Source: Burkholderiales bacterium Ga0074133 (lineage in GTDB: Bacteria; Pseudomonadota; Gammaproteobacteria; Burkholderiales; Burkholderiaceae_C). Taken from it: a stretch of 64,000 nucleotides of DNA. Within the stretch, counting starts at the first letter, position 1, and every line of letters begins with the position of its first letter. The stretch is from the NCBI GenBank assembly GCA_001464865.1, contig LNEG01000115.1, forward strand, positions 40,351-104,350, read 5' to 3'. The translations under genes were made by a program, and so were the position numbers. This document shows positions 34,294-51,882 of the stretch, in pieces. The notes below the pieces were generated by a model, which had not been told where the DNA came from, searched no databases, and worked only from the letters and a program-made list of their open reading frames with translations.

Positions 34294-34638
34294 CTAACGC
34301 CCGTGCTTACCGGCAATGACTCCGTCGAAATCCCATTGAAACTGCGCTCTTGAGAAAGCCGATTTGAACGACATTTCTACCGAAGGCATATCTCGGTCGT
34401 ATACGCGGTCATCCGCCACCACGATGCGGCTCAGTTTTTCAAACTGAGCAAGCCTAGCCAAAAGCTGGTCAAGTGGCATCGCGCTGTACAAATCCGCCCC
34501 CACCCGCAGTAATGTTGGTTGAGCACGGCTTGCTCTCGCCTCAAACTCTTCCAGGGCTTGGAGATCCAACAGTTCCAGTTCCAGCTCGAGGTTGTGCTGA
34601 GAGTTGCTGGAGGCCAGATCTAGCAGTGTCGTCGTCAT
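34294..34638 (-). CDS. Hypothetical protein in a lower-GC island
   Basis: A 114-residue, mostly helical, acidic soluble protein with an ELELELLDLQALEEFEAR stretch; no signal or membrane segment. A GAGGAA ribosome-binding site lies just before the ATG, which supports a real gene. The domain is not recognised. Base composition is clearly less GC-rich than the flanking lldD-like and methionine synthase genes. It lies 42 bp downstream of a small membrane protein gene on the same strand. Size and setting recall immunity or effector-associated genes, but that is only a guess. Confidence 0.55.
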   Translation of the reverse strand: MTTTLLDLASSNSQHNLELELELLDLQALEEFEARASRAQPTLLRVGADLYSAMPLDQLLARLAQFEKLSRIVVADDRVYDRDMPSVEMSFKSAFSRAQFQWDFDGVIAGKHGR

Positions 34639-34680
34639 AACATTCCTCGTCTACGGATGACCGCTCCTGGCCGAACACCG

Positions 34681-34932
34681 TCATCTGCTCTTGTAGCGCA
34701 GCGTTCGAGCAATCAGTATGAGCAACACACCAAGTCCCATCGGTAGGGCTGCAATGAACCAGCTCTGCTCAGTGGGGACCACGCGGTAGTAATGCGTTGT
34801 CCCGGTGAAAAAATCGATCGGTAACCCTGCGCGCAACAGCACTAGAACTAAGCCAACCACCATCAACACATAGCCTGCTCGCACAAGCCATTGGAAGCGC
34901 GTCTGGTTGGGGCGTTGCTGGTCGGTTTTCAT
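34681..34932 (-). CDS. Small two-helix membrane protein, unknown function
   Basis: An 83-residue protein with hydrophobic helices at about 17-37 and 57-77 and a basic C-terminus (RTLRYKSR). The start at MKTDQQRPNQTRFQW was preferred over the ORF-track start at 35121, since the extra 63 residues overlap the divergent gene and an AGAGGA site lies upstream of the short form. It is low in GC relative to the neighbourhood and is followed on the same strand by the 114-residue hypothetical gene. No family recognised. Confidence 0.5.
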   Translation of the reverse strand: MKTDQQRPNQTRFQWLVRAGYVLMVVGLVLVLLRAGLPIDFFTGTTHYYRVVPTEQSWFIAALPMGLGVLLILIARTLRYKSR

Positions 34933-35047
34933 ACGGTTTGAAAGTCCTCTTTTGGCCGGATTCTGCTCCACGACGAGGGACGCTAGCGGGCCCATTGCTG
35001 CCGTTGCTACGATCACGGCTTCCGCCCTAAATGAACCGGAGAGAGAC

Positions 35048-35338
35048 ATGGATGGCGCGACGCAGGAACGCATGTTTCGGAACACAGTGACTTGCAAAGG
35101 CTTGGCAGAGGGTGAAATCACTGGGGCGGTCGTGGACTTGCTCTCAGAGTTCGCAGAGCGGCCATGGCATCAGTCAGTGTCTTGTGAATGGCAAGGCGGA
35201 GTTCTGAGATTGACCACGCAAAGCGAAGGTGACGCCAATGGTGTGGCGTTGCTAGACGAGTTCCAAGATGCTGTAGTCGCATACATAAACTTTTCCGGCA
35301 CTGTTCGTTTTGAAATAGAGGCTGTTGTAGCGCTATGA
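35048..35338 (+). CDS. Hypothetical protein in a lower-GC island
   Basis: A 96-residue soluble protein starting at the ATG at 35048, with a good GGAGAGAG ribosome-binding site. The alternating pattern (SVSCEWQGGVLRLTTQSEGD, GTVRFEIEAVVAL) suggests a small alpha/beta fold. No known motif is seen. It is divergent from the small membrane protein gene and has the same moderate GC content, so the island genes may have arrived together. Confidence 0.55.
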   Translation: MDGATQERMFRNTVTCKGLAEGEITGAVVDLLSEFAERPWHQSVSCEWQGGVLRLTTQSEGDANGVALLDEFQDAVVAYINFSGTVRFEIEAVVAL

Positions 35339-36938: not shown

Positions 36939-37403
36939 TCAGCGCAGGCGTTTGAGCGTGGCGAGATATGCCACCACATCCTCGCGCTCGCGCTCGTCGT
37001 CCAGCAGGTAGTCCATGCCCTGGCCGGGGATCAGTGCCTCGGGGTTGGTCAGCCAGGCTTTCAGCGTGGCACGGGTCCACAAAATCTTGCTGTTGCGCAG
37101 CGCGGGTGAGTAGTCAAAGTCGGCCAGCGCCCCGGCACGCCGGCCCACCACGCCGCGGTGCGCGGGGCCGTCGCCGTGCACATCGGGGCTGTGGCAGCCG
37201 GCGCAATGCGCCTGGTACACCGCCCGCCCGCGCTCCACCGACTGCGCGGCAGCGGTGCCCGGTGTGCAGGCGGCCAGCAAAGCCAGGGTCATCGCCGCAA
37301 CACGCACGCGGTCCCCGATGCCGGTATGGCGCTGTGCGGGGCCCCGGGTCGGTGTGGCCGGGGCGGATGTGGGCGAAGCAGCGGGTGAGGCAGGGCGGTG
37401 CAT
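36939..37403 (-). CDS. Exported c-type cytochrome
   Basis: Up to 154 residues with one haem-attachment motif, CAGCH, and a likely Met ligand in GQGMDYLL. The fold and the PEALIPGQGM and DVVAYLATL segments are those of class I cytochromes. Export is indicated by MTLALLAACTPGTAAAQ. The true start may be the ATG at residue 38 (37292) or a GTG slightly upstream (VRVAAMTLALL), because the first 30 residues are Pro/Ala/Thr-rich and unlike a leader. The promoter of this gene, on the minus strand at 37488-37460, carries the ECF motif shared with the neighbouring operons. Confidence 0.85.
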   Translation of the reverse strand: MHRPASPAASPTSAPATPTRGPAQRHTGIGDRVRVAAMTLALLAACTPGTAAAQSVERGRAVYQAHCAGCHSPDVHGDGPAHRGVVGRRAGALADFDYSPALRNSKILWTRATLKAWLTNPEALIPGQGMDYLLDDEREREDVVAYLATLKRLR

Positions 37404-37647: not shown

Positions 37648-37676
37648 TGCATCCAGAACGCTGTTTGTGGCGTATT
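37648..37676 (+). promoter_or_regulatory. Predicted autoregulatory ECF promoter
   Basis: TGCATCC, a 16-bp spacer, then CGTATT; the -10 box ends 57 bp before the sigma factor start codon. It is one of five matching sites, all upstream of neighbouring transcription units, and predicts positive autoregulation of the sigma/anti-sigma operon. Confidence 0.65.
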
Positions 37677-37733: not shown

Positions 37734-38312
37734 ATGAGCAGCACCCTTCACCCCGACAGCGAACTGATGAACCTCATAGACCGCATTGCCGAGCAGGATG
37801 ACTCCGCGCTCAAGGAGCTGTACCGGCGCACGTCTGCCCAGCTCTTTGGCCTGGCGATGCGCATCGTGCGGCACCGCGACACGGCCGAGGAGGTGCTGCA
37901 GGAGGCCTTTTTAAGCGTCTGGCGCGGTGCAGGTAGCTACCGGGGGGCGCTCAGCCCGCCCATGGCCTGGCTGGGCCTGATCGTGCGAAGCCGTGCGCTG
38001 GATGCGCTGCGCAAGCGCGCCTCTGACCGGACCGACATGATGAACGAGCTGGACGACGACATGGCGCAGGTGCTGGAGGGCGATTCGCCCAACCCCATGG
38101 ACACGGCCGATGCCAGCGAGCAGGCGTTTGCGCTGCACCACTGCCTGGGCCGGCTGGAGAACAAGCAGCGCGAGGTGGTCAGCCTGGCCTACCTGCGCGA
38201 CATGAGTCATGGCGAACTGGCCGAGCAGCTCAAGCTGCCGCTGGGCACCGTCAAGACATGGATCCGAAGGGGTCTGGAACAGCTGCGCACCTGCATGGCG
38301 CGTTATGCCTGA
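37734..38312 (+). CDS. ECF-type RNA polymerase sigma factor
   Basis: A 192-residue sigma-70 family protein with only regions 2 and 4. Region 2 covers LYRRTSAQLFGLAMRIVRHRDTAEEVLQEAFLSVWR, and the region 4 HTH is DMSHGELAEQLKLPLGTVKTWIRRGLEQLR. The ATG at 37734 gives a standard ECF N-terminus; the longer ORF to 37494 would include the promoter. It lies 24 bp upstream of the anti-sigma gene. It probably drives the five TGAATCC-N16-CGTA type promoters of this locus, including its own. The inducing signal is unknown. Confidence 0.92.
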   Translation: MSSTLHPDSELMNLIDRIAEQDDSALKELYRRTSAQLFGLAMRIVRHRDTAEEVLQEAFLSVWRGAGSYRGALSPPMAWLGLIVRSRALDALRKRASDRTDMMNELDDDMAQVLEGDSPNPMDTADASEQAFALHHCLGRLENKQREVVSLAYLRDMSHGELAEQLKLPLGTVKTWIRRGLEQLRTCMARYA

Positions 38313-38336: not shown

Positions 38337-39143
38337 ATGAACATTACCCAACACCCCGAACTGCTCGACCGCCTGGCGGTGAGCTATGCCCTGGGCACCC
38401 TGCGCGGTGGCGCACGCCGCCGCTTTGAAACCCTGGCCCGCGAACACGCCACCGTGCGTGCAGCCGCCCTGGTGTGGCAGACCCGCTGGTCGGGCCTGAC
38501 CGAGCTGCAGCCCGCGGTAGAGCCCGCGCCCGCCGTGTGGACGCGCATCGACAACCTGGTGCAGGCCGGCAAATCGCAGGCCGCCATGCAGGCCGCCCGC
38601 GCCGATGCAGCCCAGGCGGCAGCCCGCGAGCCAGCTGCAGGCGGCTGGTGGCGCAACCTGCTGGTGTGGCGTGGTGCGGCGGCCGCCGGTGCGGTGGCCA
38701 CGCTGGCCGCGGTGGTGGTGGGCGTGCAGGTCAATGGCGGCCTCAAGGCCACCACGGGCGCGCAGATCGCGTCGCTGCAGCAGCAACTGCAGGCCACGCC
38801 GCAGATCCAGTACGTGGCCGTGCTGGCCGACGCCAAGGCCGACGCATCGATGCTCGTCACCTTTGACCCCAAGAACAACCAGCTGGTGCTGCAACGTGTG
38901 GGTGGCTTCCAGGAGGGTGACGACAAATCCCTGCAGCTGTGGGCGCTGCCGCCTGCCGGTGGCCCGCGTTCGCTGGGCGTTCTGGGTGGCGACAAGCTGC
39001 TCAAGCTGACCGCGCAGGAGGGCGACGTGAAAGAGGTGCCCACGCTGGCCATCAGCCTGGAGCCACGCGGCGGCGTGCCCAGCGCCACCGGCCCCACAGG
39101 CCCTGTGCTGTTCAAGGGCGCACTCATCCGCAAGGCGACCTGA
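38337..39143 (+). CDS. RskA-type membrane anti-sigma factor
   Basis: A 268-residue bitopic membrane protein. The cytoplasmic N-terminal domain (LLDRLAVSYALGTLRGGARRRFETLAREH), about 80 residues, should bind the sigma factor. One transmembrane helix lies at about 117-135 (GAAAAGAVATLAAVVVGVQV). The periplasmic RskA C-terminal domain includes LQLWALPPAGGPRSLGVL and AISLEPRGGVPSATGPTGPVLFKG. It is encoded 24 bp downstream of the ECF gene and is followed by a strong terminator. By analogy with RskA proteins, release of sigma follows a periplasmic or membrane signal; the absence of a zinc-binding HxxxCxxC motif argues against a ZAS-type redox switch. Confidence 0.88.
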   Translation: MNITQHPELLDRLAVSYALGTLRGGARRRFETLAREHATVRAAALVWQTRWSGLTELQPAVEPAPAVWTRIDNLVQAGKSQAAMQAARADAAQAAAREPAAGGWWRNLLVWRGAAAAGAVATLAAVVVGVQVNGGLKATTGAQIASLQQQLQATPQIQYVAVLADAKADASMLVTFDPKNNQLVLQRVGGFQEGDDKSLQLWALPPAGGPRSLGVLGGDKLLKLTAQEGDVKEVPTLAISLEPRGGVPSATGPTGPVLFKGALIRKAT

Positions 39144-39317: not shown

Positions 39318-39346
39318 TGAATCCGGTGGCGCCGCCTCCGCGTATT
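39318..39346 (+). promoter_or_regulatory. Predicted ECF promoter for the DUF4331 operon
   Basis: TGAATCC, a 16-bp spacer, then CGTATT; the -10 ends 47 bp before the DUF4331 start. The -35 box is identical to those of the cytochrome and DUF3034 promoters, and the -10 box to that of the sigma factor promoter. Confidence 0.65.
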
Positions 39347-39393: not shown

Positions 39394-40947
39394 ATGCAAC
39401 TGAAGAAACTCAGCCTGGCCGTACTGGCCATGCTGGCAGCAGGTACCGCCGGCGTCAGCCTGGCGTCCAGCCACCGCGAAGCGCCATTCATCACCACCCA
39501 GCCCAAGGTCGACGGCGCAGACTTCTACATGTTCAACAGCTACGAGGCGGGCCGCTCGGGTTTTGTGACCATGATCGCCAACTACCTGCCCCTGCAGGAC
39601 GCGTACGGCGGCCCCAACTACTTCAGCCTGGACCCGAATGCGCTCTACGAGATCCACATCGACAACAACGGTGACGCGGCCGAAGACATCACCTTCCAGT
39701 TCCGCTTCAAGAACACCCTGAATAACGCGGGCGCCGGCATCACGCTCGACATCGGCCCCGATGGCGCGCGCAAGAAGGTGGCGATCCCGCTGCGCAACGC
39801 TGGCGGCATCACCGGCGCGGCGGCCGACCCGCTGGCCTACCGTGAAGAATATGAAATGTTCATCGTGCGCGGTGACCGCCGCACCGGCAAGCGAGAGCAG
39901 GTCACGCTGACCAGCGGTGGCACCACCTTCACCAAGCCCATCGACTACATCGGCGAGAAATCGCTGGGCAACGCTGCCGCCTACGACGCCTATGCCGGCC
40001 GCTACGTGTACGGCATCAACATCCCGGGCTGCAGCACGCCGGGCAAGGTGTTCGTGGGCCAGCGCCAGGACCCGTTCCCCGTGTCGCTGGGTACTATTTT
40101 CGACCTGGTCAACGCACCCGCAGCCGTCATCACCAGCGAGGCCAATGCCGCCGCTTTTGGCGCCGGGCAGATTGCCGACAAGAACGTGACCTCGCTGGCG
40201 GTGGAAGTGCCCACCAGCTGCGTCACGGCAGCGTCGGGCGAGAAGGTGATTGGCGGCTGGACCACCGCCAGCCTGCGCCAGGCGCGCGTGCTCAACGGAA
40301 AGCCCGATTCAGGCCTGCAGGCCAGCGAAAAGGCCGGCGGCGCATGGACGCAGGTCTCGCGCCTGGGCATGCCGCTGGTCAATGAAGTGGTCATCGGCCT
40401 CAAGGACAAGGACAAGTTCAATGCGTCCAGGCCCAAGGACGACGCGGCCAACTTTGCCGACTACGTGACGCACCCCACGCTGCCCGCGCTGATCGAGGTG
40501 CTGTTCGGCGCCAAGGCACCCACCAACTTCCCGCGCACCGACCTGATGACGGCCTTCCTGACCGGTCTGCCCACCGTGAACCGGCCGGGCAACATCACCG
40601 GCCTGGGTGCTGGCGGCCCGCTGTCCGAAATGCTGCGCCTGAACACGGGCATTGCTGCCACGGCAGCCAGCGCACAAAGCTCGCTGGGTGTGGTCGGTGG
40701 CGATGCCGCGGGCTTCCCCAACGGCCGCCGCCTGGGCGACGATGTGGTGGATGTGTCGCTGCGCGTGGCCATGGGTGCGCTGTGCAGCGTCACCGGCACC
40801 ACCGATGCGCTCAAGGTCGGCTGCAAGCCGTCGGATGCTCCCGCAGGCACCGTGCCCTTTGTGGACGGATCGCGCACCAAGGCCATCGACTACCGCACGG
40901 CCTTCCCGTATGTGAACCCGCCACTGCCCGGCGCCCGCAACTTCTGA
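39394..40947 (+). CDS. DUF4331 family exported protein
   Basis: A 517-residue protein. The signal peptide MQLKKLSLAVLAMLAAGTAGVSLA is followed at once by the DUF4331 hallmark SSHREAPFITTQPKVDGADFYMFNSYE. ALYEIHIDNNGDAAEDITFQFRF and the C-terminal RLGDDVVDVSLRVAMGAL also match the family. It is predicted periplasmic or surface-located. DUF4331 proteins have no proven function. A strong ribosome-binding site (AGGAGATTTCC) precedes the ATG. A small lipoprotein gene follows after 14 bp, and an ECF-type promoter lies upstream. The family often sits with TPR and HupE-like genes, as it does here. Confidence 0.9.
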   Translation: MQLKKLSLAVLAMLAAGTAGVSLASSHREAPFITTQPKVDGADFYMFNSYEAGRSGFVTMIANYLPLQDAYGGPNYFSLDPNALYEIHIDNNGDAAEDITFQFRFKNTLNNAGAGITLDIGPDGARKKVAIPLRNAGGITGAAADPLAYREEYEMFIVRGDRRTGKREQVTLTSGGTTFTKPIDYIGEKSLGNAAAYDAYAGRYVYGINIPGCSTPGKVFVGQRQDPFPVSLGTIFDLVNAPAAVITSEANAAAFGAGQIADKNVTSLAVEVPTSCVTAASGEKVIGGWTTASLRQARVLNGKPDSGLQASEKAGGAWTQVSRLGMPLVNEVVIGLKDKDKFNASRPKDDAANFADYVTHPTLPALIEVLFGAKAPTNFPRTDLMTAFLTGLPTVNRPGNITGLGAGGPLSEMLRLNTGIAATAASAQSSLGVVGGDAAGFPNGRRLGDDVVDVSLRVAMGALCSVTGTTDALKVGCKPSDAPAGTVPFVDGSRTKAIDYRTAFPYVNPPLPGARNF

Positions 40948-40961
40948 ACCGGGAGAAGAGC

Positions 40962-41213
40962 ATGAAAAACAAGGTTTCTCTTGCCCGCGTGCCGGTGGCG
41001 CTGGCCTGCGCTGCGGTGCTGGGCCTGGCAGGCTGCGGAGGCGGCGGCAGCGACAGCGCCGTCAGCCCTGAAACGGGTCCGGTGATGGTGGACGCCTTCA
41101 ACTACGTGGCGCCCATCGTGGGCATTGGCATGGCAGACATGACCGAGCCTCAGGACATCAGCCGCATCGTGCTGTCTACCACCGAGACCGAAGAGCCCGA
41201 TACACGGCTCTGA
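40962..41213 (+). CDS. Small putative lipoprotein
   Basis: An 83-residue protein with a lipoprotein signal: basic N-terminus, hydrophobic ALACAAVLGLAGC, and Cys at about residue 25 in the lipobox LAGC. The mature part is short and acidic (MTEPQDISRIVLSTTETEEPDTRL). A GGGAGAAGAG site precedes the ATG. It is in an operon with the DUF4331 gene (14-bp gap). The function is unknown; it may be a partner or anchor for the DUF4331 protein. Confidence 0.7.
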   Translation: MKNKVSLARVPVALACAAVLGLAGCGGGGSDSAVSPETGPVMVDAFNYVAPIVGIGMADMTEPQDISRIVLSTTETEEPDTRL

Positions 41214-41303
41214 ACCCGCACTGATGCGGACTGAAGGCCCTGGCTGGCGCGCCACGATAGCGCCAGCCAGGGCCCGCGGCAACGCTGCGCTGGATTGCGC
41301 GTG

Positions 41304-41332
41304 GCGTTCCGTGCCCCCCCCAAATACGTATC
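41304..41332 (+). promoter_or_regulatory. Predicted ECF promoter for the TPR/HupE operon (weaker -35)
   Basis: GCGTTCC, a 16-bp spacer that includes a run of C residues, then CGTATC. Only TCC of the -35 agrees with the other four sites, but the spacer length and the CGTAT box agree. The -10 ends 25 bp before the TPR start. It is the least certain of the five sites. Confidence 0.45.
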
Positions 41333-41357
41333 TCCTGATGCTCCTGCCGGAGTCACC

Positions 41358-42560
41358 ATGCACCCCTCTTTCTACCTGGCTCGCTGCGCCACATTGACCC
41401 GCTGCGCGCGGCCTGTGCTGGCTGCACTCGGACTGACTGTTGCCGCCGTGACGGCCCATGCCGCCGCGCCGCAGGACCTGCGCGCAGGCGCTGACGCCGA
41501 GGTGGTGGAACGCCTGCCCGAACGCGTGGGCGCGGCCCCCGCCACACCGCAGGCTGCGGCCACGGCGGCCCGCCGCTGGATCACGCTGTCGCGCGACATG
41601 GCCGACCCGCGCTACCTGGGCCGTGCCCAGGCGGCCCTGGCGCCCTGGTGGGGCCAGCCCGGTGCCCCGGCAGAGCTGTTGGTGCTGCAGGCCACGGTGG
41701 AGCAGGCCCGCCACGAATTCACGGCTGCCCGTGCCACGCTGGAACGGGCGCTGCAGGCCAACCCGGCTCAGGTGCAGGGCTGGCTTACGCTGGCCACGCT
41801 GGAACGTGTGGCCGCACGCTATCCCGCTGCCGAAAACGCCTGTCGCAATGTGGCCCGCCACGGCGCGACGATGTATGCCGCCGCCTGCACGCTGGAAACG
41901 CGTTCGCTGCAAGGCCAGCATGATGCAGCGCGCAGCGGGTTGACCGCCCTCGCGCAGCAGCTGGGGGCCGCGCCTGCGCAGCGCGCCTGGGTGGTGTCGC
42001 TGCTGGCCGAAAGCGAGGAGCGCGCCGGCCGCGATGACGCCGCCGAGGCCGCCTATCGCCGCAGTCTGGCCGACGTGGCCGATGGCTACACGGCACTGGC
42101 CTATGCCGACCATCTGCTTCGCCGCGGGCGCGCCAGTGCCGTGCTGGACGTGCTGCGTGGCCAGCCCGCCAGCGACGCGGTGCTGCTGCGGCGGGCTTAC
42201 GCCCTGCGGCTGCTGGGTGACGATGCGTGGCGGCCCGTGGCGGCCGAGGTGCAGGAGCGGTTTGCTGCCATTGCGCAGCGCGGCGAGGGGCTGGACGCCC
42301 ACGCCCGTGAACGTGCCCTGATGGCCCTGTGGCTGGATGCCCGGCCGGATGTGGCCTGGCAGGCCGCCCGTACCAACCTCACCCTGCAAAAAGAGCCACT
42401 TGACTGGTGGCTGGCACTGCAGGCATCCGAACAGTCGCGCGACACGGCGGCGCACCGCGCCGTGGTCCAGGCGCTGGCGCAGACAGGCCTGCAGGACGCG
42501 CGGCTGGCCCGCTGGCAGCCGCAGGCGGCTACCAAGACATCCGCACAGGAAGGCCAATGA
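41358..42560 (+). CDS. Exported tetratricopeptide-repeat protein
   Basis: A 400-residue protein with a leader (CARPVLAALGLTVAAVTAHAA) and several degenerate TPR-like helical pairs from about 90 to 330 (LERALQANPAQVQGWLTLATLE, AEAAYRRSLADVADGYTALAYADHLLRRG). It is probably a periplasmic scaffold. The start at 41358 has CCGGAG 7 bp upstream; the ORF-track start at 41295 would include the predicted -10 box. Its stop overlaps the ATG of the HupE-like gene by 4 bp (ATGA), so the pair is translationally coupled. The pairing suggests that the two products act together. Confidence 0.82.
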   Translation: MHPSFYLARCATLTRCARPVLAALGLTVAAVTAHAAAPQDLRAGADAEVVERLPERVGAAPATPQAAATAARRWITLSRDMADPRYLGRAQAALAPWWGQPGAPAELLVLQATVEQARHEFTAARATLERALQANPAQVQGWLTLATLERVAARYPAAENACRNVARHGATMYAAACTLETRSLQGQHDAARSGLTALAQQLGAAPAQRAWVVSLLAESEERAGRDDAAEAAYRRSLADVADGYTALAYADHLLRRGRASAVLDVLRGQPASDAVLLRRAYALRLLGDDAWRPVAAEVQERFAAIAQRGEGLDAHARERALMALWLDARPDVAWQAARTNLTLQKEPLDWWLALQASEQSRDTAAHRAVVQALAQTGLQDARLARWQPQAATKTSAQEGQ

Positions 42561-43894
42561 TGTTCCGCACTCCATTCACGCGCGCGGCCGTGCTGGGCGC
42601 CCTGTGCCTGGCACTGTCCGCCCCGGCCCACGCTCACAAGGCCAGTGATGCCTACCTGCGCATCACCGATGCTGCCGCGGCCACCGACACTGGCGCCGGC
42701 ATTTCCGGTGCGCAGCAGGCTGCCCCTGCAGCACCGCCTGATGCGACTTCTGCATCGTCAGTGGGTGCGCTTTCGCTGTCCCTCTCCATCGCGCTCAAGG
42801 ATGTGGATGCCGCGGTGGACCAGCTCGATGCCGATGCCGACCGCCTGCTGACCTGGGGCGAGGTGCGCCAGGCAGCGGGCGCCATCGCGCAGTGGGTGGG
42901 TGCGGGCGTGCAGTGGACGTGCGCGGGGGCCGCCGTGGCCCCGCCTGCGTGGCGCCTGGCGGCCCTGGAGCAGCGCAGCGATGGCCGTTACGCGCGCCTG
43001 CAGTCCACGCTGGACTGTGCACCGGGCCAGCCTCTGGCATTGGGCTACAGCCTGATGCAGGGTGTGGACCCCACGCACCGCCTGCTGGTGGCTGGCAGCC
43101 TGGGTGGCCAGCCCCTGGCCGCCGTGGTGGTGCCCGACGGGCGCTCCACCACCGATCTGCGCTCGGCAGCGCAGGCGGGTGCCAATGGAGATGGCGAGGC
43201 CCAGGGCCTGGCCGCTGGCGAGGCGTCGGCGACGCCGCGCGGCGGGTTCGCCACGCTGCTGCACTTTGTCAGCGAAGGCGTGCACCACATTCTGGAGGGC
43301 TACGACCATCTGGCGTTTCTGCTGGCGCTGCTGCTGCCCATTACCCTTTGGCCGCGTCAGGCAGGGCAGGGCGTGGCATCTGGGCCGATGTACCGTCAGC
43401 GGGTGTCTGCCAGCCACGCCAGCGGCGGGCGCTGGGCGGGCCTTCGGGCACTGTTTGTCACCGTCACCTGCTTCACGCTGGGGCATTCCGTTACGCTGGC
43501 GCTGGCGGGCCTTGGCATCGTGCAGGTGTCCGGCAACTGGGTGGAGCCCGCCATTGCCGTGAGCATCGGCATCTCTGCCTGGCTCAACCTGTACCCCGTA
43601 CGCGGGCTGCGCGGCAGCTGGCTGGCGCTGGGCTTCGGGCTGGTGCACGGGCTGGGGTTCTCGGGCGTGCTGGTCGAGGCGGGGGTATCCGGCGGCCTGC
43701 TGCTGTGGGCGCTGGCCGGGTTCAATCTGGGGGTGGAGGCAGGGCAGCTGGCTCTGGTGGCGCTGTGGTGCGTGGTGTCGGCAGTGCTGATGCGCTGGCG
43801 CCTTTACACCCCCGTGGTGGTGCGGGGCGGCTCCGCGGCGCTGGTGGCCCTTTCGGTGTACTGGACGGTGCAGCGCGTGGCGTTTGCGGGCTGA
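42557..43894 (+). CDS. HupE/UreJ-like membrane protein with periplasmic EF-hand-like domain
   Basis: A 445-residue protein. A signal peptide ends near AHAHK, followed by a periplasmic region of about 210 residues and then six or seven transmembrane helices (about 245-440) of the HupE/UreJ family. The membrane part includes EGVHHILEGYDHLAFLLALLLP, TCFTLGHSVTLALA and LVHGLGFSGVLVE, with the family's conserved His and Asp residues. The segment DADADRLLTWGE in the periplasmic part fits an EF-hand calcium loop at positions 1, 3, 5, 8 and 12. HupE/UreJ proteins are linked to nickel uptake in hydrogenase and urease systems, but no such genes are here, so the metal is unknown. Confidence 0.85.
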   Translation: MMFRTPFTRAAVLGALCLALSAPAHAHKASDAYLRITDAAAATDTGAGISGAQQAAPAAPPDATSASSVGALSLSLSIALKDVDAAVDQLDADADRLLTWGEVRQAAGAIAQWVGAGVQWTCAGAAVAPPAWRLAALEQRSDGRYARLQSTLDCAPGQPLALGYSLMQGVDPTHRLLVAGSLGGQPLAAVVVPDGRSTTDLRSAAQAGANGDGEAQGLAAGEASATPRGGFATLLHFVSEGVHHILEGYDHLAFLLALLLPITLWPRQAGQGVASGPMYRQRVSASHASGGRWAGLRALFVTVTCFTLGHSVTLALAGLGIVQVSGNWVEPAIAVSIGISAWLNLYPVRGLRGSWLALGFGLVHGLGFSGVLVEAGVSGGLLLWALAGFNLGVEAGQLALVALWCVVSAVLMRWRLYTPVVVRGGSAALVALSVYWTVQRVAFAG

Positions 43895-43948: not shown

Positions 43949-43977
43949 TGAATCCAGCCAGTGCCGGTCATCGTAGT
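43949..43977 (+). promoter_or_regulatory. Predicted ECF promoter for the DUF3034/globin/cupredoxin operon
   Basis: TGAATCC, a 16-bp spacer, then CGTAGT; the -10 ends 41 bp before the DUF3034 start codon. It shares 11 fixed positions at the same spacing with the cytochrome and DUF4331 promoters. Confidence 0.65.
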
Positions 43978-44018: not shown

Positions 44019-44957
44019 ATGAAGATGAAAACGATTCCGTCATTGGCATGGGTGGCAGGCCTTGCACTGGCTGCCGGCACCGTGCAGGCCGATACCGGCA
44101 AGCTGCTGCTCACAGGTGGGGTGAACACCATCGCCGGCTCTGCCGGCGGCGGGCTGACCCCCTGGGCTGTGATCGGCACCAACGCCACCCAAGGGGAGGT
44201 GGGCGTCAGCGGCTACGCCACCCGCGCAGCCACGCAGGACTACAGCCTGAACGGCTACGGCGTGGCCGTGGGGCTGTACGACCGGGTGGAGCTATCGCTG
44301 GCGCGCCAGGATTTCGATGCCTCTCCCGCCATCGCGCTCAACGGCATTGCGGCTTTTGGCGTCACGCCGGGCCAGCACATCAAGATGGACGTGGTGGGCA
44401 TCAAGGTGAAGGTGCTTGGTGATGCCGTGCTGGATGCCGACACCTGGGTGCCGCAAGTGGCGGTGGGTATCGAGCACAAGCGTACGCATCCCGGCAGCAT
44501 CGGATCGGTGCTGGACTTTCTGGGTACCAAAAGAAGCGGCACCGACGTGTACGTGAGCGCCACCAAGCTGCTGCTCGACAAGAGCCTGCTGCTCAACGGC
44601 ACCCTGCGCTACACCAACGCCAACCAGAACGGACTGCTGGGCTTTGGCTCGGCCGCGCCCGGCAAGAACAGCCGCAGTCTGCAGCCCGAGTTCTCGGTGG
44701 CCTACCTCCTCAACAAGAACCTGGCCGTGGGTGCCGAGTACCGCTTCAAGCCCAACAACCTGCAGGCCCTGGGTGCCGCGGCCGGCCTGGGCACCGCACT
44801 GCGCGAAGACGACTGGAAGGACATCTTCATTGCCTGGGCGCCCAGCAAGAACCTGTCGTTCACGCTGGCGTATGTGGACCTTGGCCGCATCGTGCCAGGC
44901 ATCACCAGCAACCGCCGGCAGACCGGCTACTACCTTTCGGCCCAGGTCGCCTTTTGA
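44019..44957 (+). CDS. DUF3034 family outer-membrane-like beta protein
   Basis: A 312-residue protein. A leader (MKMKTIPSLAWVAGLALAAGTVQA) is followed by an amphipathic beta-rich sequence ending in aromatic Phe (QTGYYLSAQVAF), the pattern of outer membrane beta-barrels. Motifs such as KLLLTGGVNTIAGSAGGGL and VGAEYRFKPNNLQ fit DUF3034. It is likely in the outer membrane, with unknown function. AGGAG lies 6 bp before the ATG at 44019. It is the first gene of an operon with an exported globin (10-bp gap) and a cupredoxin-like protein, under a predicted ECF promoter. Confidence 0.82.
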   Translation: MKMKTIPSLAWVAGLALAAGTVQADTGKLLLTGGVNTIAGSAGGGLTPWAVIGTNATQGEVGVSGYATRAATQDYSLNGYGVAVGLYDRVELSLARQDFDASPAIALNGIAAFGVTPGQHIKMDVVGIKVKVLGDAVLDADTWVPQVAVGIEHKRTHPGSIGSVLDFLGTKRSGTDVYVSATKLLLDKSLLLNGTLRYTNANQNGLLGFGSAAPGKNSRSLQPEFSVAYLLNKNLAVGAEYRFKPNNLQALGAAAGLGTALREDDWKDIFIAWAPSKNLSFTLAYVDLGRIVPGITSNRRQTGYYLSAQVAF

Positions 44958-44967
44958 GGAGAATTTC

Positions 44968-45435
44968 ATGACGCACCCCAAAACCCTCATGGCGCTTGCC
45001 GTGGCCCTGAGCGGCTTGCTGTCCGCCCCCGCGTTTGCCCAGCCTGCTGCGGCGCCAGCGGCGACCACCGCTGCCCCCGCCGGCCTGTACCAGGCGCTCG
45101 GCGAAAAGCCCGGCATCACCCGCCTCATGGATGATTTCGTCAATCGCTTGGTGAAAGACCCCCGTATCGGCAACCACTTCAAGGACACCAAGCCTGCCGC
45201 GCTGAAGGAAAGCCTGACCGATCAGGTCTGCCAGCTCAGTGGCGGCCCCTGCAAGTACGAGGGCGCCGACATGAAATCGGCCCATGCCGACATGGACATC
45301 AACAAGGGGCATTTCAATGCCCTCGTCGAGGTGCTGCAGGTCTCGATGGACGCGCAGGGCATCCCGTTTGTGCAGCAAAACCGACTGCTGGCGCTGCTGG
45401 CGCCCATGCACCGCGATGTGATCACCGTACGCTAA
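44968..45435 (+). CDS. Exported group 1 truncated haemoglobin
   Basis: A 155-residue protein. A signal peptide (MTHPKTLMALAVALSGLLSAPAFA) and an Ala/Pro linker precede a truncated globin domain (about 40-150). The proximal haem His is in MKSAHADMDI, and the family loop is CQLSGGPCKYEG. The B10 position, usually Tyr after Phe in FY, is Val here (DDFVNRL), which would alter oxygen or NO binding. Most truncated globins are cytoplasmic, so a leader is notable and suggests periplasmic gas or redox chemistry. A GAGGAG site precedes the ATG. It is in an operon with the DUF3034 and cupredoxin genes. Confidence 0.88.
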   Translation: MTHPKTLMALAVALSGLLSAPAFAQPAAAPAATTAAPAGLYQALGEKPGITRLMDDFVNRLVKDPRIGNHFKDTKPAALKESLTDQVCQLSGGPCKYEGADMKSAHADMDINKGHFNALVEVLQVSMDAQGIPFVQQNRLLALLAPMHRDVITVR

Positions 45436-45446
45436 GGCAGCACACC

Positions 45447-46205
45447 ATGAAAAACGCTATTTTTTTGATAGCTGCTACGGCATATGTTGCAAGCGCTAGC
45501 GCCGGAAATGTGCAAATTCAGGTGCTGGACCGCGACGGCAAGCCCGTTCCGGACGCCGTGGTGGTGCTGTACCCCGGCAGCGCGGCGGGCAGCCCGCCCA
45601 GCCTGCTGCAGGCCAGCCCCACCATCGACCAGGAAAAAATGCGCTTTGTCCCGGCCGTGACGGTGGTCGCGCCGGGCTCGACCGTGCGCTTTACCAATCA
45701 GGACCGCTGGGACCACCATGTGCGCGGCAACCCCTCGGGCGGCGCAGCCAGCACCCCGGCGGGCGGCGCGCAGGCCGCTGCCAGCGGTACGGCGGCTACG
45801 CCCAACTTCGAGTTGCGTCTGGCCGGCAAGGCCGATGGCAAGCCCGCCAACCACGCCGACGTGAAGCTCGACACCGCAGGCGTGGTGCTGCTGGGCTGCC
45901 ACCTGCACGGCTCCATGCGCGGCCACATCTTTGTCACCGATTCGGCCTGGACCCTCAAGACCGACAACGACGGCATCGCACGTTTCCCCGCCGTACCAGA
46001 TGGCGCGGCCCAGGTGCGCGTATGGCACGCCGAGCAACTGGTCGACCTGCCCCGCAAGGCCCTGACGGTAGTGCCGGGCCCGGTGCTCGACACCGTGCAG
46101 CTCAGCGTGGTGCCCCGCGTGCGCCGCGCCCCACCAGCCGCGCCAGCAGGTGGGCCCATGGGCTCCTACAGCCAGGCGCCCGCTGCGGCTACGCACGTCC
46201 ACTAG
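45447..46205 (+). CDS. Cupredoxin-like exported protein ('methylamine utilization protein' type)
   Basis: A 252-residue protein. A short leader (MKNAIFLIAATAYVASASA) is followed by a plastocyanin-like domain with candidate type 1 copper ligands: His in DRWDHHVRG, then Cys, His and Met in LLGCHLHGSMRGHI. An Ala/Gly/Thr-rich insertion lies between the two blocks, and a C-terminal beta domain (DNDGIARFPAVPDGAAQVRVWH) follows. Database names of this family mention methylamine, but no mau genes are present. It is probably a periplasmic copper or electron-transfer protein and the last gene of its operon. Its start and leader are encoded by a dispersed repeat. Confidence 0.8.
   Translation: MKNAIFLIAATAYVASASAGNVQIQVLDRDGKPVPDAVVVLYPGSAAGSPPSLLQASPTIDQEKMRFVPAVTVVAPGSTVRFTNQDRWDHHVRGNPSGGAASTPAGGAQAAASGTAATPNFELRLAGKADGKPANHADVKLDTAGVVLLGCHLHGSMRGHIFVTDSAWTLKTDNDGIARFPAVPDGAAQVRVWHAEQLVDLPRKALTVVPGPVLDTVQLSVVPRVRRAPPAAPAGGPMGSYSQAPAAATHVH
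45455..45503. repeat. Family 2 dispersed repeat forming the cupredoxin leader
   Basis: The segment CGCTATTTTTTTGATAGCTG then CTACGG...TTGCAAGCGCTAGCGCC has the layout GCTATT-n-GATAGCTGCT plus an AAGCGCTAG end. That layout is familiar from short intergenic repeats of this bacterial family. Here it is translated and supplies most of the signal peptide (NAIFLIAATAYVASASA). It is AT-rich relative to the rest of the gene. Confidence 0.5.
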
Positions 46206-46392: not shown

Positions 46393-47328
46393 ATGAGCGC
46401 TCCCAAGTCGCTGTCTCCCATGAAGACGAACATTCTTATCGTTGACGATAACGCCAGCATGATTCAGCTCGTGGCCCGGATGCTCAAGGGCGTCGCCCGG
46501 CTGCGTTTCGCCACAGGCGGGGCTGAGGCCTTGGAGCTGATGCGCCAGGAGCGCCCGGATCTGGTCCTGCTGGATGCGGAAATGCCTGGGATGAGTGGCT
46601 ATGAAGTGTGTGAAGCCATCCGGGCCGACGCTTTGCTCAGCACGGTGCCCGTGGTCTTCCTCACGGGCAATGGTGACACCGCTGCCGAGGTACGCGGGCT
46701 CGAGGCCGGGGCGGTGGACTTCATCACCAAGCCGGTCCATGAGGCGCTGTTGCTGGCGCGCGTGCGCACCCAGCTGCGCGTCAAGACCCTGTCGGACGAG
46801 CTGCGTCTGATGGCCTGCACGGACGGGCTGACCGGCGTGGCCAACCGCCGGCATTTTGACGAGATGCTCAACCTGGAATGGGTGCGCAATGCGCGCGAGG
46901 GAACGTCCCTGGCGCTGCTGATGGTCGACGTCGATCACTTCAAACGCTACAACGACTGCCACGGACATCCGGCGGGAGACGTTTGCCTGAAGGCCGTGGC
47001 CCGCGCGCTGGCTTCGGTGGCCAGGCGCCCTGCAGACCTGGTGGGTCGCGTGGGTGGCGAGGAGTTTGCGGTGCTGCTGCCCGGCACCGACCTGAAAGGC
47101 GCCCGTCGGGTGGCCCAGGAGGCCATTGAAGCAGTCCACGCGCTTGCGGTGCCACATGCCGACTCGCCCACCGCGCCGCAAGTGACTGCAAGCATCGGGG
47201 TGGCTGCGTGTTCGGACGCCGAGTTTGTCGACCGCGCGGCGTCATCGCTGGTGCGGGTCGCCGACGAAGCCCTGTACGCAGCAAAAAGCGCGGGCAGAAA
47301 CCGCTGGTGCACGGTGGAGAAAGGCTGA
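46393..47328 (+). CDS. Response regulator with GGDEF output (diguanylate cyclase)
   Basis: A 311-residue cytoplasmic protein. The receiver domain (about 10-130) has ILIVDDNAS, phospho-acceptor Asp61 in LVLLDAEMPG, and Lys in DFITKPV. The GGDEF domain (about 145-308) has an active GGEEF motif and the inhibitory I-site RPAD five residues before it. It is a PleD/WspR-like output that makes cyclic di-GMP when phosphorylated. Either the ATG at 46393 or the one at 46420 (MKTNILIVDD) could be used; the latter gives the typical receiver N-terminus. The hybrid kinase gene begins 3 bp after its stop, so they form one operon and probably one signalling chain. Confidence 0.92.
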   Translation: MSAPKSLSPMKTNILIVDDNASMIQLVARMLKGVARLRFATGGAEALELMRQERPDLVLLDAEMPGMSGYEVCEAIRADALLSTVPVVFLTGNGDTAAEVRGLEAGAVDFITKPVHEALLLARVRTQLRVKTLSDELRLMACTDGLTGVANRRHFDEMLNLEWVRNAREGTSLALLMVDVDHFKRYNDCHGHPAGDVCLKAVARALASVARRPADLVGRVGGEEFAVLLPGTDLKGARRVAQEAIEAVHALAVPHADSPTAPQVTASIGVAACSDAEFVDRAASSLVRVADEALYAAKSAGRNRWCTVEKG

Positions 47329-47331
47329 GCC

Positions 47332-51882
<4,551 letters not shown>

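What the first reader, a model, noticed from the sequence alone, without database searches (positions are those of the whole stretch)
44968..45435. Truncated haemoglobin with a signal peptide in an ECF-controlled operon
The globin carries a clear leader and sits between an outer-membrane-like protein and a cupredoxin-like protein. The residue after Phe in helix B, usually Tyr, is Val. Exported truncated globins are less usual than cytoplasmic ones. A periplasmic haem/copper pair plus a cytochrome c suggests gas (NO, O2, CO) sensing or detoxification, or electron transfer, outside the cytoplasm.
Basis: partly seen in the sequence, partly recalled or inferred. Interest (0 to 1): 0.5.

Follow-up and report, generated by a model that had tools for sequence, protein, structure and literature searches.

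The report
Exported haemoglobin in a sigma-factor stress cassette
This Acidovorax-like bacterium makes a small haemoglobin that is sent out of the cytoplasm together with a blue-copper protein and an outer-membrane barrel, under a stress-type sigma factor; relatives wire the same set to a c-di-GMP sensor instead, which hints at a little-studied envelope gas or redox sensing module.

Summary
Window 44968-45435 encodes a group 1 truncated haemoglobin (TrHb1) with an N-terminal export leader. It lies between an outer-membrane beta-barrel (DUF3034) and a type-1 copper cupredoxin. B10 is Val where M. tuberculosis HbN has Tyr. DUF3034-globin is adjacent in nearly all relatives, usually with the cupredoxin. 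ECF control is supported by sequence: GAATCC-N16-CGTATT-type sites precede the sigma factor, DUF4331 and DUF3034, and only six such sites exist in the genome. The sigma/anti-sigma pair is SigK/RskA-like, and the wider predicted regulon is exported proteins (cytochrome c, fasciclin, DUF4148-like, DUF3455).

(1) Export is not rare: 9 of 22 sampled TrHbs in this class carry a leader. They share an apolar distal pocket (B10, E7, E11) and a Cys pair that cytosolic TrHbs lack. (2) The Tyr/Gln dyad of HbN NO dioxygenase is missing. (3) In seven other families the same genes sit with a dCache-HAMP-GGDEF-EAL protein instead of an ECF pair.

My best mechanism is a periplasmic gas-binding haem protein, O2-discriminating and NO/CO-preferring, redox-coupled to the cupredoxin. 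It is inferred, not shown. Verdict: new variant of a known kind.

The parts
44968..45435 (+). exported group 1 truncated haemoglobin (GLB); leader residues 1-24, Ala/Pro linker, globin domain ~38-152; B10 V58, CD1 F71, E7 L79, E11 L83, F8 H106, Cys88/Cys95
44019..44957 (+). DUF3034 (PF11231), outer-membrane beta-barrel with leader and terminal Phe
45447..46205 (+). exported cupredoxin with type-1 copper ligands His90, Cys151, His154, Met157
37734..38312 (+). ECF sigma factor, SigK-like (Cys137, Cys187)
38337..39143 (+). anti-sigma factor, RskA_C (PF10099)
37649..37676 (+). predicted ECF promoter GCATCC-N16-CGTATT before the sigma gene
39319..39346 (+). predicted ECF promoter GAATCC-N16-CGTATT before DUF4331
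43950..43977 (+). predicted ECF promoter GAATCC-N16-CGTAGT before DUF3034-GLB-CUP
39394..40947 (+). DUF4331 exported protein; first gene of an optional inserted module
40962..41213 (+). small lipoprotein-like ORF of the optional module
41358..42560 (+). exported TPR protein of the optional module (start codon uncertain)
42560..43894 (+). HupE/UreJ_2 membrane protein of the optional module
36939..37403 (-). class I cytochrome c, divergent; has the same promoter motif in several relatives
46393..47328 (+). response regulator-GGDEF; neighbour here, directly upstream of the trio in L044/L046; membership uncertain
47332..51882 (+). CHASE-PAS hybrid histidine kinase next to the GGDEF gene; membership uncertain

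Best explanation
The gene encodes a periplasmic group 1 truncated haemoglobin. It is expressed with an outer-membrane barrel and a periplasmic blue-copper protein under a SigK/RskA-type ECF system that responds to an envelope (probably redox) stress. Its pocket has no hydrogen-bond donor at B10, E7 or E11, so it should hold O2 poorly and bind NO or CO preferentially, as O2-excluding haem sensors do. I propose that it is a gas- and redox-responsive haem protein whose iron is kept ferrous by electron exchange with the cupredoxin, and whose state is read by the envelope signalling device encoded with it: the ECF pair in Comamonadaceae, a dCache-HAMP-GGDEF-EAL protein in other Gammaproteobacteria. 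Supported here by sequence: identity, export leader, pocket residues, Cys pair, neighbours, conserved promoter motif. Inferred: location in the periplasm, haem binding, ligand preference, cupredoxin as partner, signal read-out.
For: Globin identity and F8 His/CD1 Phe. Leader in 72/72 homologues. Apolar B10/E7/E11 in all cassette homologues, and Cys88/Cys95 invariant in 73 exported sequences, the second Cys absent in cytosolic ones (sample). DUF3034-GLB gap median 25 bases. CUP-GGDEF/EAL-DUF3034-GLB in one order in seven genomes, and as divergent or reduced versions in three more. dCache_3-HAMP-GGDEF-EAL domains. Promoter motif 3 sites against 0.02 expected in the window, 6 against 0 control in the genome, kept upstream of DUF3034 even where the ECF pair has moved or flipped. 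Both SigK cysteines in 62/62.
Against: No ligand, redox or localisation data exist. The gene is a predicted target of the ECF, so it may be an effector rather than a sensor. GGDEF-EAL is absent from the trio in most Comamonadaceae, so the c-di-GMP link is not universal. Neighbourhood shows association, not interaction. The promoter pattern was first read off the three window sites, so the within-window count is not independent; the genus-wide and displaced-locus results are the real test. Disulfide formation is not tested.
Confidence: 0.35

Rival explanations
1. Periplasmic NO (or reactive nitrogen) detoxification: the globin turns NO over with O2, or reduces it, and the cupredoxin re-reduces the haem.
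For: TrHb1 relatives such as HbN are NO dioxygenases (general knowledge); a cupredoxin donor sits next door.
Against: Tyr B10 and Gln E11 are replaced by apolar residues in every homologue. The window's genome shows no strong nirS or nirK hit, and in the genus the cassette is not enriched with nirS.
Confidence: 0.2
2. Envelope oxidative or photo-oxidative stress protection: the SigK-like regulon makes a set of secreted protective proteins, and the globin binds stray haem or shuttles electrons to peroxide or O2 with the cupredoxin and cytochrome c.
For: Regulon of exported proteins including fasciclin, cytochrome c and DUF3455 genes, and a ferritin-like gene beside the ECF pair in one relative. 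A fasciclin (MPT83)-SigK-RskA cassette is known, also in Gram-negatives (PMC7509140). A fasciclin gene is listed among photo-oxidative stress genes of R. sphaeroides (PMC7074977).
Against: An apolar distal pocket is poor for peroxidase chemistry. It does not explain the GGDEF-EAL partner in other families.
Confidence: 0.25
3. Respiratory or extracellular electron transfer: barrel, cupredoxin, globin and cytochrome c form a route across the periplasm, as proposed for the globin-fused cytochromes of cable bacteria.
For: Metalloprotein set plus outer-membrane barrel. Cable bacteria carry pentahaem cytochromes fused to truncated haemoglobins, proposed as a periplasmic terminal oxidase (PMC11976967).
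Against: No multihaem protein in the locus. A 12-strand barrel is small for a conduit. The cytochrome c is not part of the trio in distant lineages.
Confidence: 0.12
4. The globin is a conserved passenger or structural protein without ligand chemistry.
For: DUF3034 occurs without a recognised adjacent globin in 5 of 17 evaluable genomes.
Against: F8 His is invariant, CD1 Phe nearly so, and the globin domain is strongly conserved while the linker is not.
Confidence: 0.08

Closest known systems
Group 1 truncated haemoglobin, M. tuberculosis HbN (1IDR)
   Same: Fold family, length, CD1 Phe, E7 Leu, F8 His; ungapped alignment over 117 residues
   Different: Exported; B10 Val for Tyr, E11 Leu for Gln; conserved Cys pair at HbN positions 63 and 70; metalloprotein operon
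Cable-bacteria pentahaem cytochrome-truncated haemoglobin fusions (PMC11976967)
   Same: Truncated haemoglobin domain outside the cytoplasm, paired with redox proteins
   Different: There fused to a multihaem cytochrome; here a stand-alone protein beside a cupredoxin and a barrel
SigK-RskA-MPT83 cassette, ECF18/ECF19 (PMC7509140)
   Same: SigK-like ECF with two conserved cysteines 50 residues apart, RskA anti-sigma, fasciclin target, conserved promoter
   Different: The Comamonadaceae regulon adds the DUF3034-globin-cupredoxin trio, cytochrome c, DUF4148-like, DUF3455 and sometimes DUF4331-HupE
H-NOX/c-di-GMP gas-sensing operons (from memory, not tested)
   Same: A haem protein without a distal H-bond donor encoded beside a GGDEF-EAL enzyme (distant lineages)
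   Different: Here the haem protein is a truncated globin outside the cytoplasm and the enzyme has a periplasmic dCache input domain

Membership tests
Group 1 truncated haemoglobin | PF01152 match above cut-off and group 1 nearest solved structures | tested here: met
   43.4 bits against 21; 1DLY, 1IDR, 3AQ5 and others
Group 1 truncated haemoglobin | Proximal F8 His and CD1 Phe | tested here: met
   F8 His in every row; CD1 Phe in all 34 genus and 28 Comamonadaceae-type rows, 6/7 distant
HbN-type NO dioxygenase | Tyr B10 / Gln E11 distal dyad | tested here: not met
   V58 and L83; never Tyr/Gln in homologues
Exported (Sec) protein | n/h/c leader with signal peptidase site | tested here: met
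   Heuristic only, 72/72; no SignalP available
SigK/RskA ECF pair (ECF18/19) | ECF regions 2 and 4, two conserved Cys 50 residues apart, adjacent RskA_C anti-sigma | tested here: met
   compared with PMC7509140
SigK/RskA ECF pair (ECF18/19) | Placement in the ECF18/19 clade by phylogeny | not tested
   No tree of ECF factors was built
Cupredoxin (type-1 copper) | His, Cys, His, Met ligands | tested here: met
   Invariant in 22/22
Cupredoxin (type-1 copper) | Cupredoxin fold | tested here: met
   pLDDT 84; plastocyanin/amicyanin TM (target) ~0.7
Outer-membrane beta-barrel | Barrel of even strand number with C-terminal aromatic | tested here: met
   12 strands, terminal Phe, FapF/OmpG/NanC matches

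The most novel reading that the evidence does not exclude
A periplasmic globin/blue-copper sensory module: an exported, O2-excluding truncated haemoglobin with a cupredoxin and a barrel forms an extracytoplasmic gas/redox sensor that is plugged into either c-di-GMP (dCache-GGDEF-EAL) or an ECF sigma factor, as an envelope counterpart of cytoplasmic H-NOX signalling.
Probability: 0.2. Interest if true: 0.75.

Novelty: new variant of a known kind. Interest (0 to 1): 0.5.

Why it matters
Bacterial truncated haemoglobins are mostly discussed as cytoplasmic. Here a large exported branch has its own signature (apolar distal pocket plus an invariant Cys pair) and a conserved set of partners that no paper found in the searched library describes. 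It gives DUF3034 a fold and a context, and offers a testable case of haem-based sensing or chemistry on the outer side of the inner membrane.

Tried and rejected
Association with own-source NO: nirS is not enriched with the cassette (9/27 against 6/10, Fisher p 0.26) and the nirK hits in the genus are sub-threshold cupredoxin matches. DUF4331-LP-TPR-HupE as part of the core: rejected, absent between ASF and DUF3034 in most genus genomes, though it reappears with the trio in L059. The upstream GGDEF genes of other Acidovorax (30-37% identity) as the dCache-GGDEF-EAL orthologue: rejected, the match is to the GGDEF domain only. A single clean clade of all exported TrHbs: not shown; one lineage (L203) groups elsewhere, the others as one clade are not rejected (p-AU 0.36). 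Literature searches for exported or periplasmic globins, DUF3034 and DUF4331 gave only cable-bacteria papers or nothing relevant.

Full report
WHAT IS THERE. The ORF at 44968-45435 has an ATG preceded by GAGGAG, 10 bases after the DUF3034 stop. It is a Bac_globin whose best solved relatives are group 1 truncated haemoglobins. The alignment to HbN is ungapped over residues 36-152, which fixes the pocket: B10 V58, CD1 F71, E7 L79, E11 L83, F8 H106. The leader is MTHPKTLMALAVALSGLLSAPAFA|Q. All 72 distinct homologues checked have a leader, eleven with a lipobox by a simple rule, three after moving to an upstream start codon.

NEIGHBOURS. DUF3034 (PF11231, 313 bits) is predicted as a 12-strand barrel ending in Phe and matches FapF, OmpG and NanC. 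The downstream protein is a cupredoxin by fold, with His90, Cys151, His154 and Met157 invariant in 22 of 22. Upstream are an ECF sigma factor and an RskA_C anti-sigma factor, and a divergent cytochrome c.

CONSERVATION. In the genus, 27 of 37 genomes have the full-length globin, always next to DUF3034 and the cupredoxin in the loci fetched. In 54 genome-contig loci, DUF3034 is adjacent wherever the contig reaches; the cupredoxin was not found by similarity in about a dozen Paracidovorax, Curvibacter, Aquabacterium and similar loci. The ECF pair is near but moves and flips. DUF4331-lipoprotein-TPR-HupE is an optional insertion, yet DUF4331, HupE and TPR reappear with the trio in an unrelated family (L059). 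Of 18 class genomes with DUF3034 in 369 searched, 12 of 17 evaluable have an adjacent globin.

ALTERNATIVE WIRING. Outside Comamonadaceae the order cupredoxin - dCache_3-HAMP-GGDEF-EAL - DUF3034 - globin occurs in seven genomes (L054, L055, L056, L057, L060, L216, L217), with L042 and L059 as divergent forms and L058 lacking the globin. Counting the forms with a globin this is seven families. Domains were scanned for three of these proteins; the others were matched by similarity. Reading frames abut or overlap, for example in L217. No ECF pair or motif was found there.

REGULATION. I read GAATCC-N16-CGTATT by eye before three window genes; the pattern has 3 matches against 0.02 expected, and 6 in the whole genome against 0 for the reversed control. 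Two of the others precede a fasciclin gene and a DUF4148-like gene (the DUF4148 name is mine, not scanned). In twelve congeners the sites precede cytochrome c, sigma, DUF4331, DUF3034, fasciclin, DUF4148-like and DUF3455 genes. A matrix trained on sites not at DUF3034 finds the motif about 45 bases before DUF3034 in most Comamonadaceae loci, including those where the ECF pair lies elsewhere (L046, L061, L092, L100, L101, L106, L115; L044 has an exact site further upstream). The sigma factor has both cysteines that PMC7509140 describes for SigK, 62 of 62. That paper also describes a fasciclin(MPT83)-SigK-RskA cassette reaching into Gram-negatives. ECF control is therefore well supported by sequence, not by experiment.

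EXPORTED TrHb1 BRANCH. A 60-gene sample from a 150-genome search of the phylum gave 11 with leaders; 9 of the 22 from this class (a heuristic call: the script flagged 14, of which four hydrophobic N-termini were judged false by eye, and L212, whose frame lacks a start in the stretch and is cut by a stop, was added). Cys88 and Cys95 are invariant in all 73 exported rows and the second is absent in the cytosolic rows; 9 of the 11 sampled exported proteins show the pair in full, one is cut by a stop before the second Cys, and one (L203) lacks it. B10, E7 and E11 are apolar in the rows; in the sample one exported protein (L201) may have Asn at B10. The exported and cytosolic labels are strongly clustered on the tree (2 changes against 17 for shuffles) and one origin is not rejected if L203 is left out. 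A disulfide is likely but untested.

FUNCTION. Without Tyr B10 and Gln E11, HbN-type NO dioxygenase chemistry is unlikely, and nirS shows no positive link. General knowledge of haem sensors suggests that lack of a distal donor favours NO/CO over O2. Together with two different transmembrane signalling partners, I favour a periplasmic gas/redox-responsive haem protein with the cupredoxin as electron partner (0.35), above photo-oxidative or oxidative envelope protection (0.25) and NO turnover (0.2).

Noticed in passing
window 39394-43894; L059:9388-13403: DUF4331-TPR-HupE/UreJ_2 module, optional within Acidovorax, recurs beside DUF3034-globin-cupredoxin in an unrelated family, so it is probably a functional partner module.
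   Followed up: partly
L123, L136, L139, L144, L151: Small secreted DUF4148-like genes with near-identical SigK-type promoters occur in several copies per Acidovorax genome.
   Followed up: no
L092:11543-12130: A ferritin-like exported protein (Ferritin_2) sits between the ECF pair and cytochrome c in a Comamonadaceae relative.
   Followed up: no
window 46393-51882: RR-GGDEF and CHASE-PAS hybrid kinase lie downstream of the trio here but directly upstream of it in L044 and L046.
   Followed up: partly
window 34294-35121: Two minus-strand ORFs with markedly lower third-position GC than the surroundings, possibly foreign DNA.
   Followed up: no
L062, L063, L219, L220: DUF3034 genes without globin or cupredoxin partners found nearby.
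   Followed up: no
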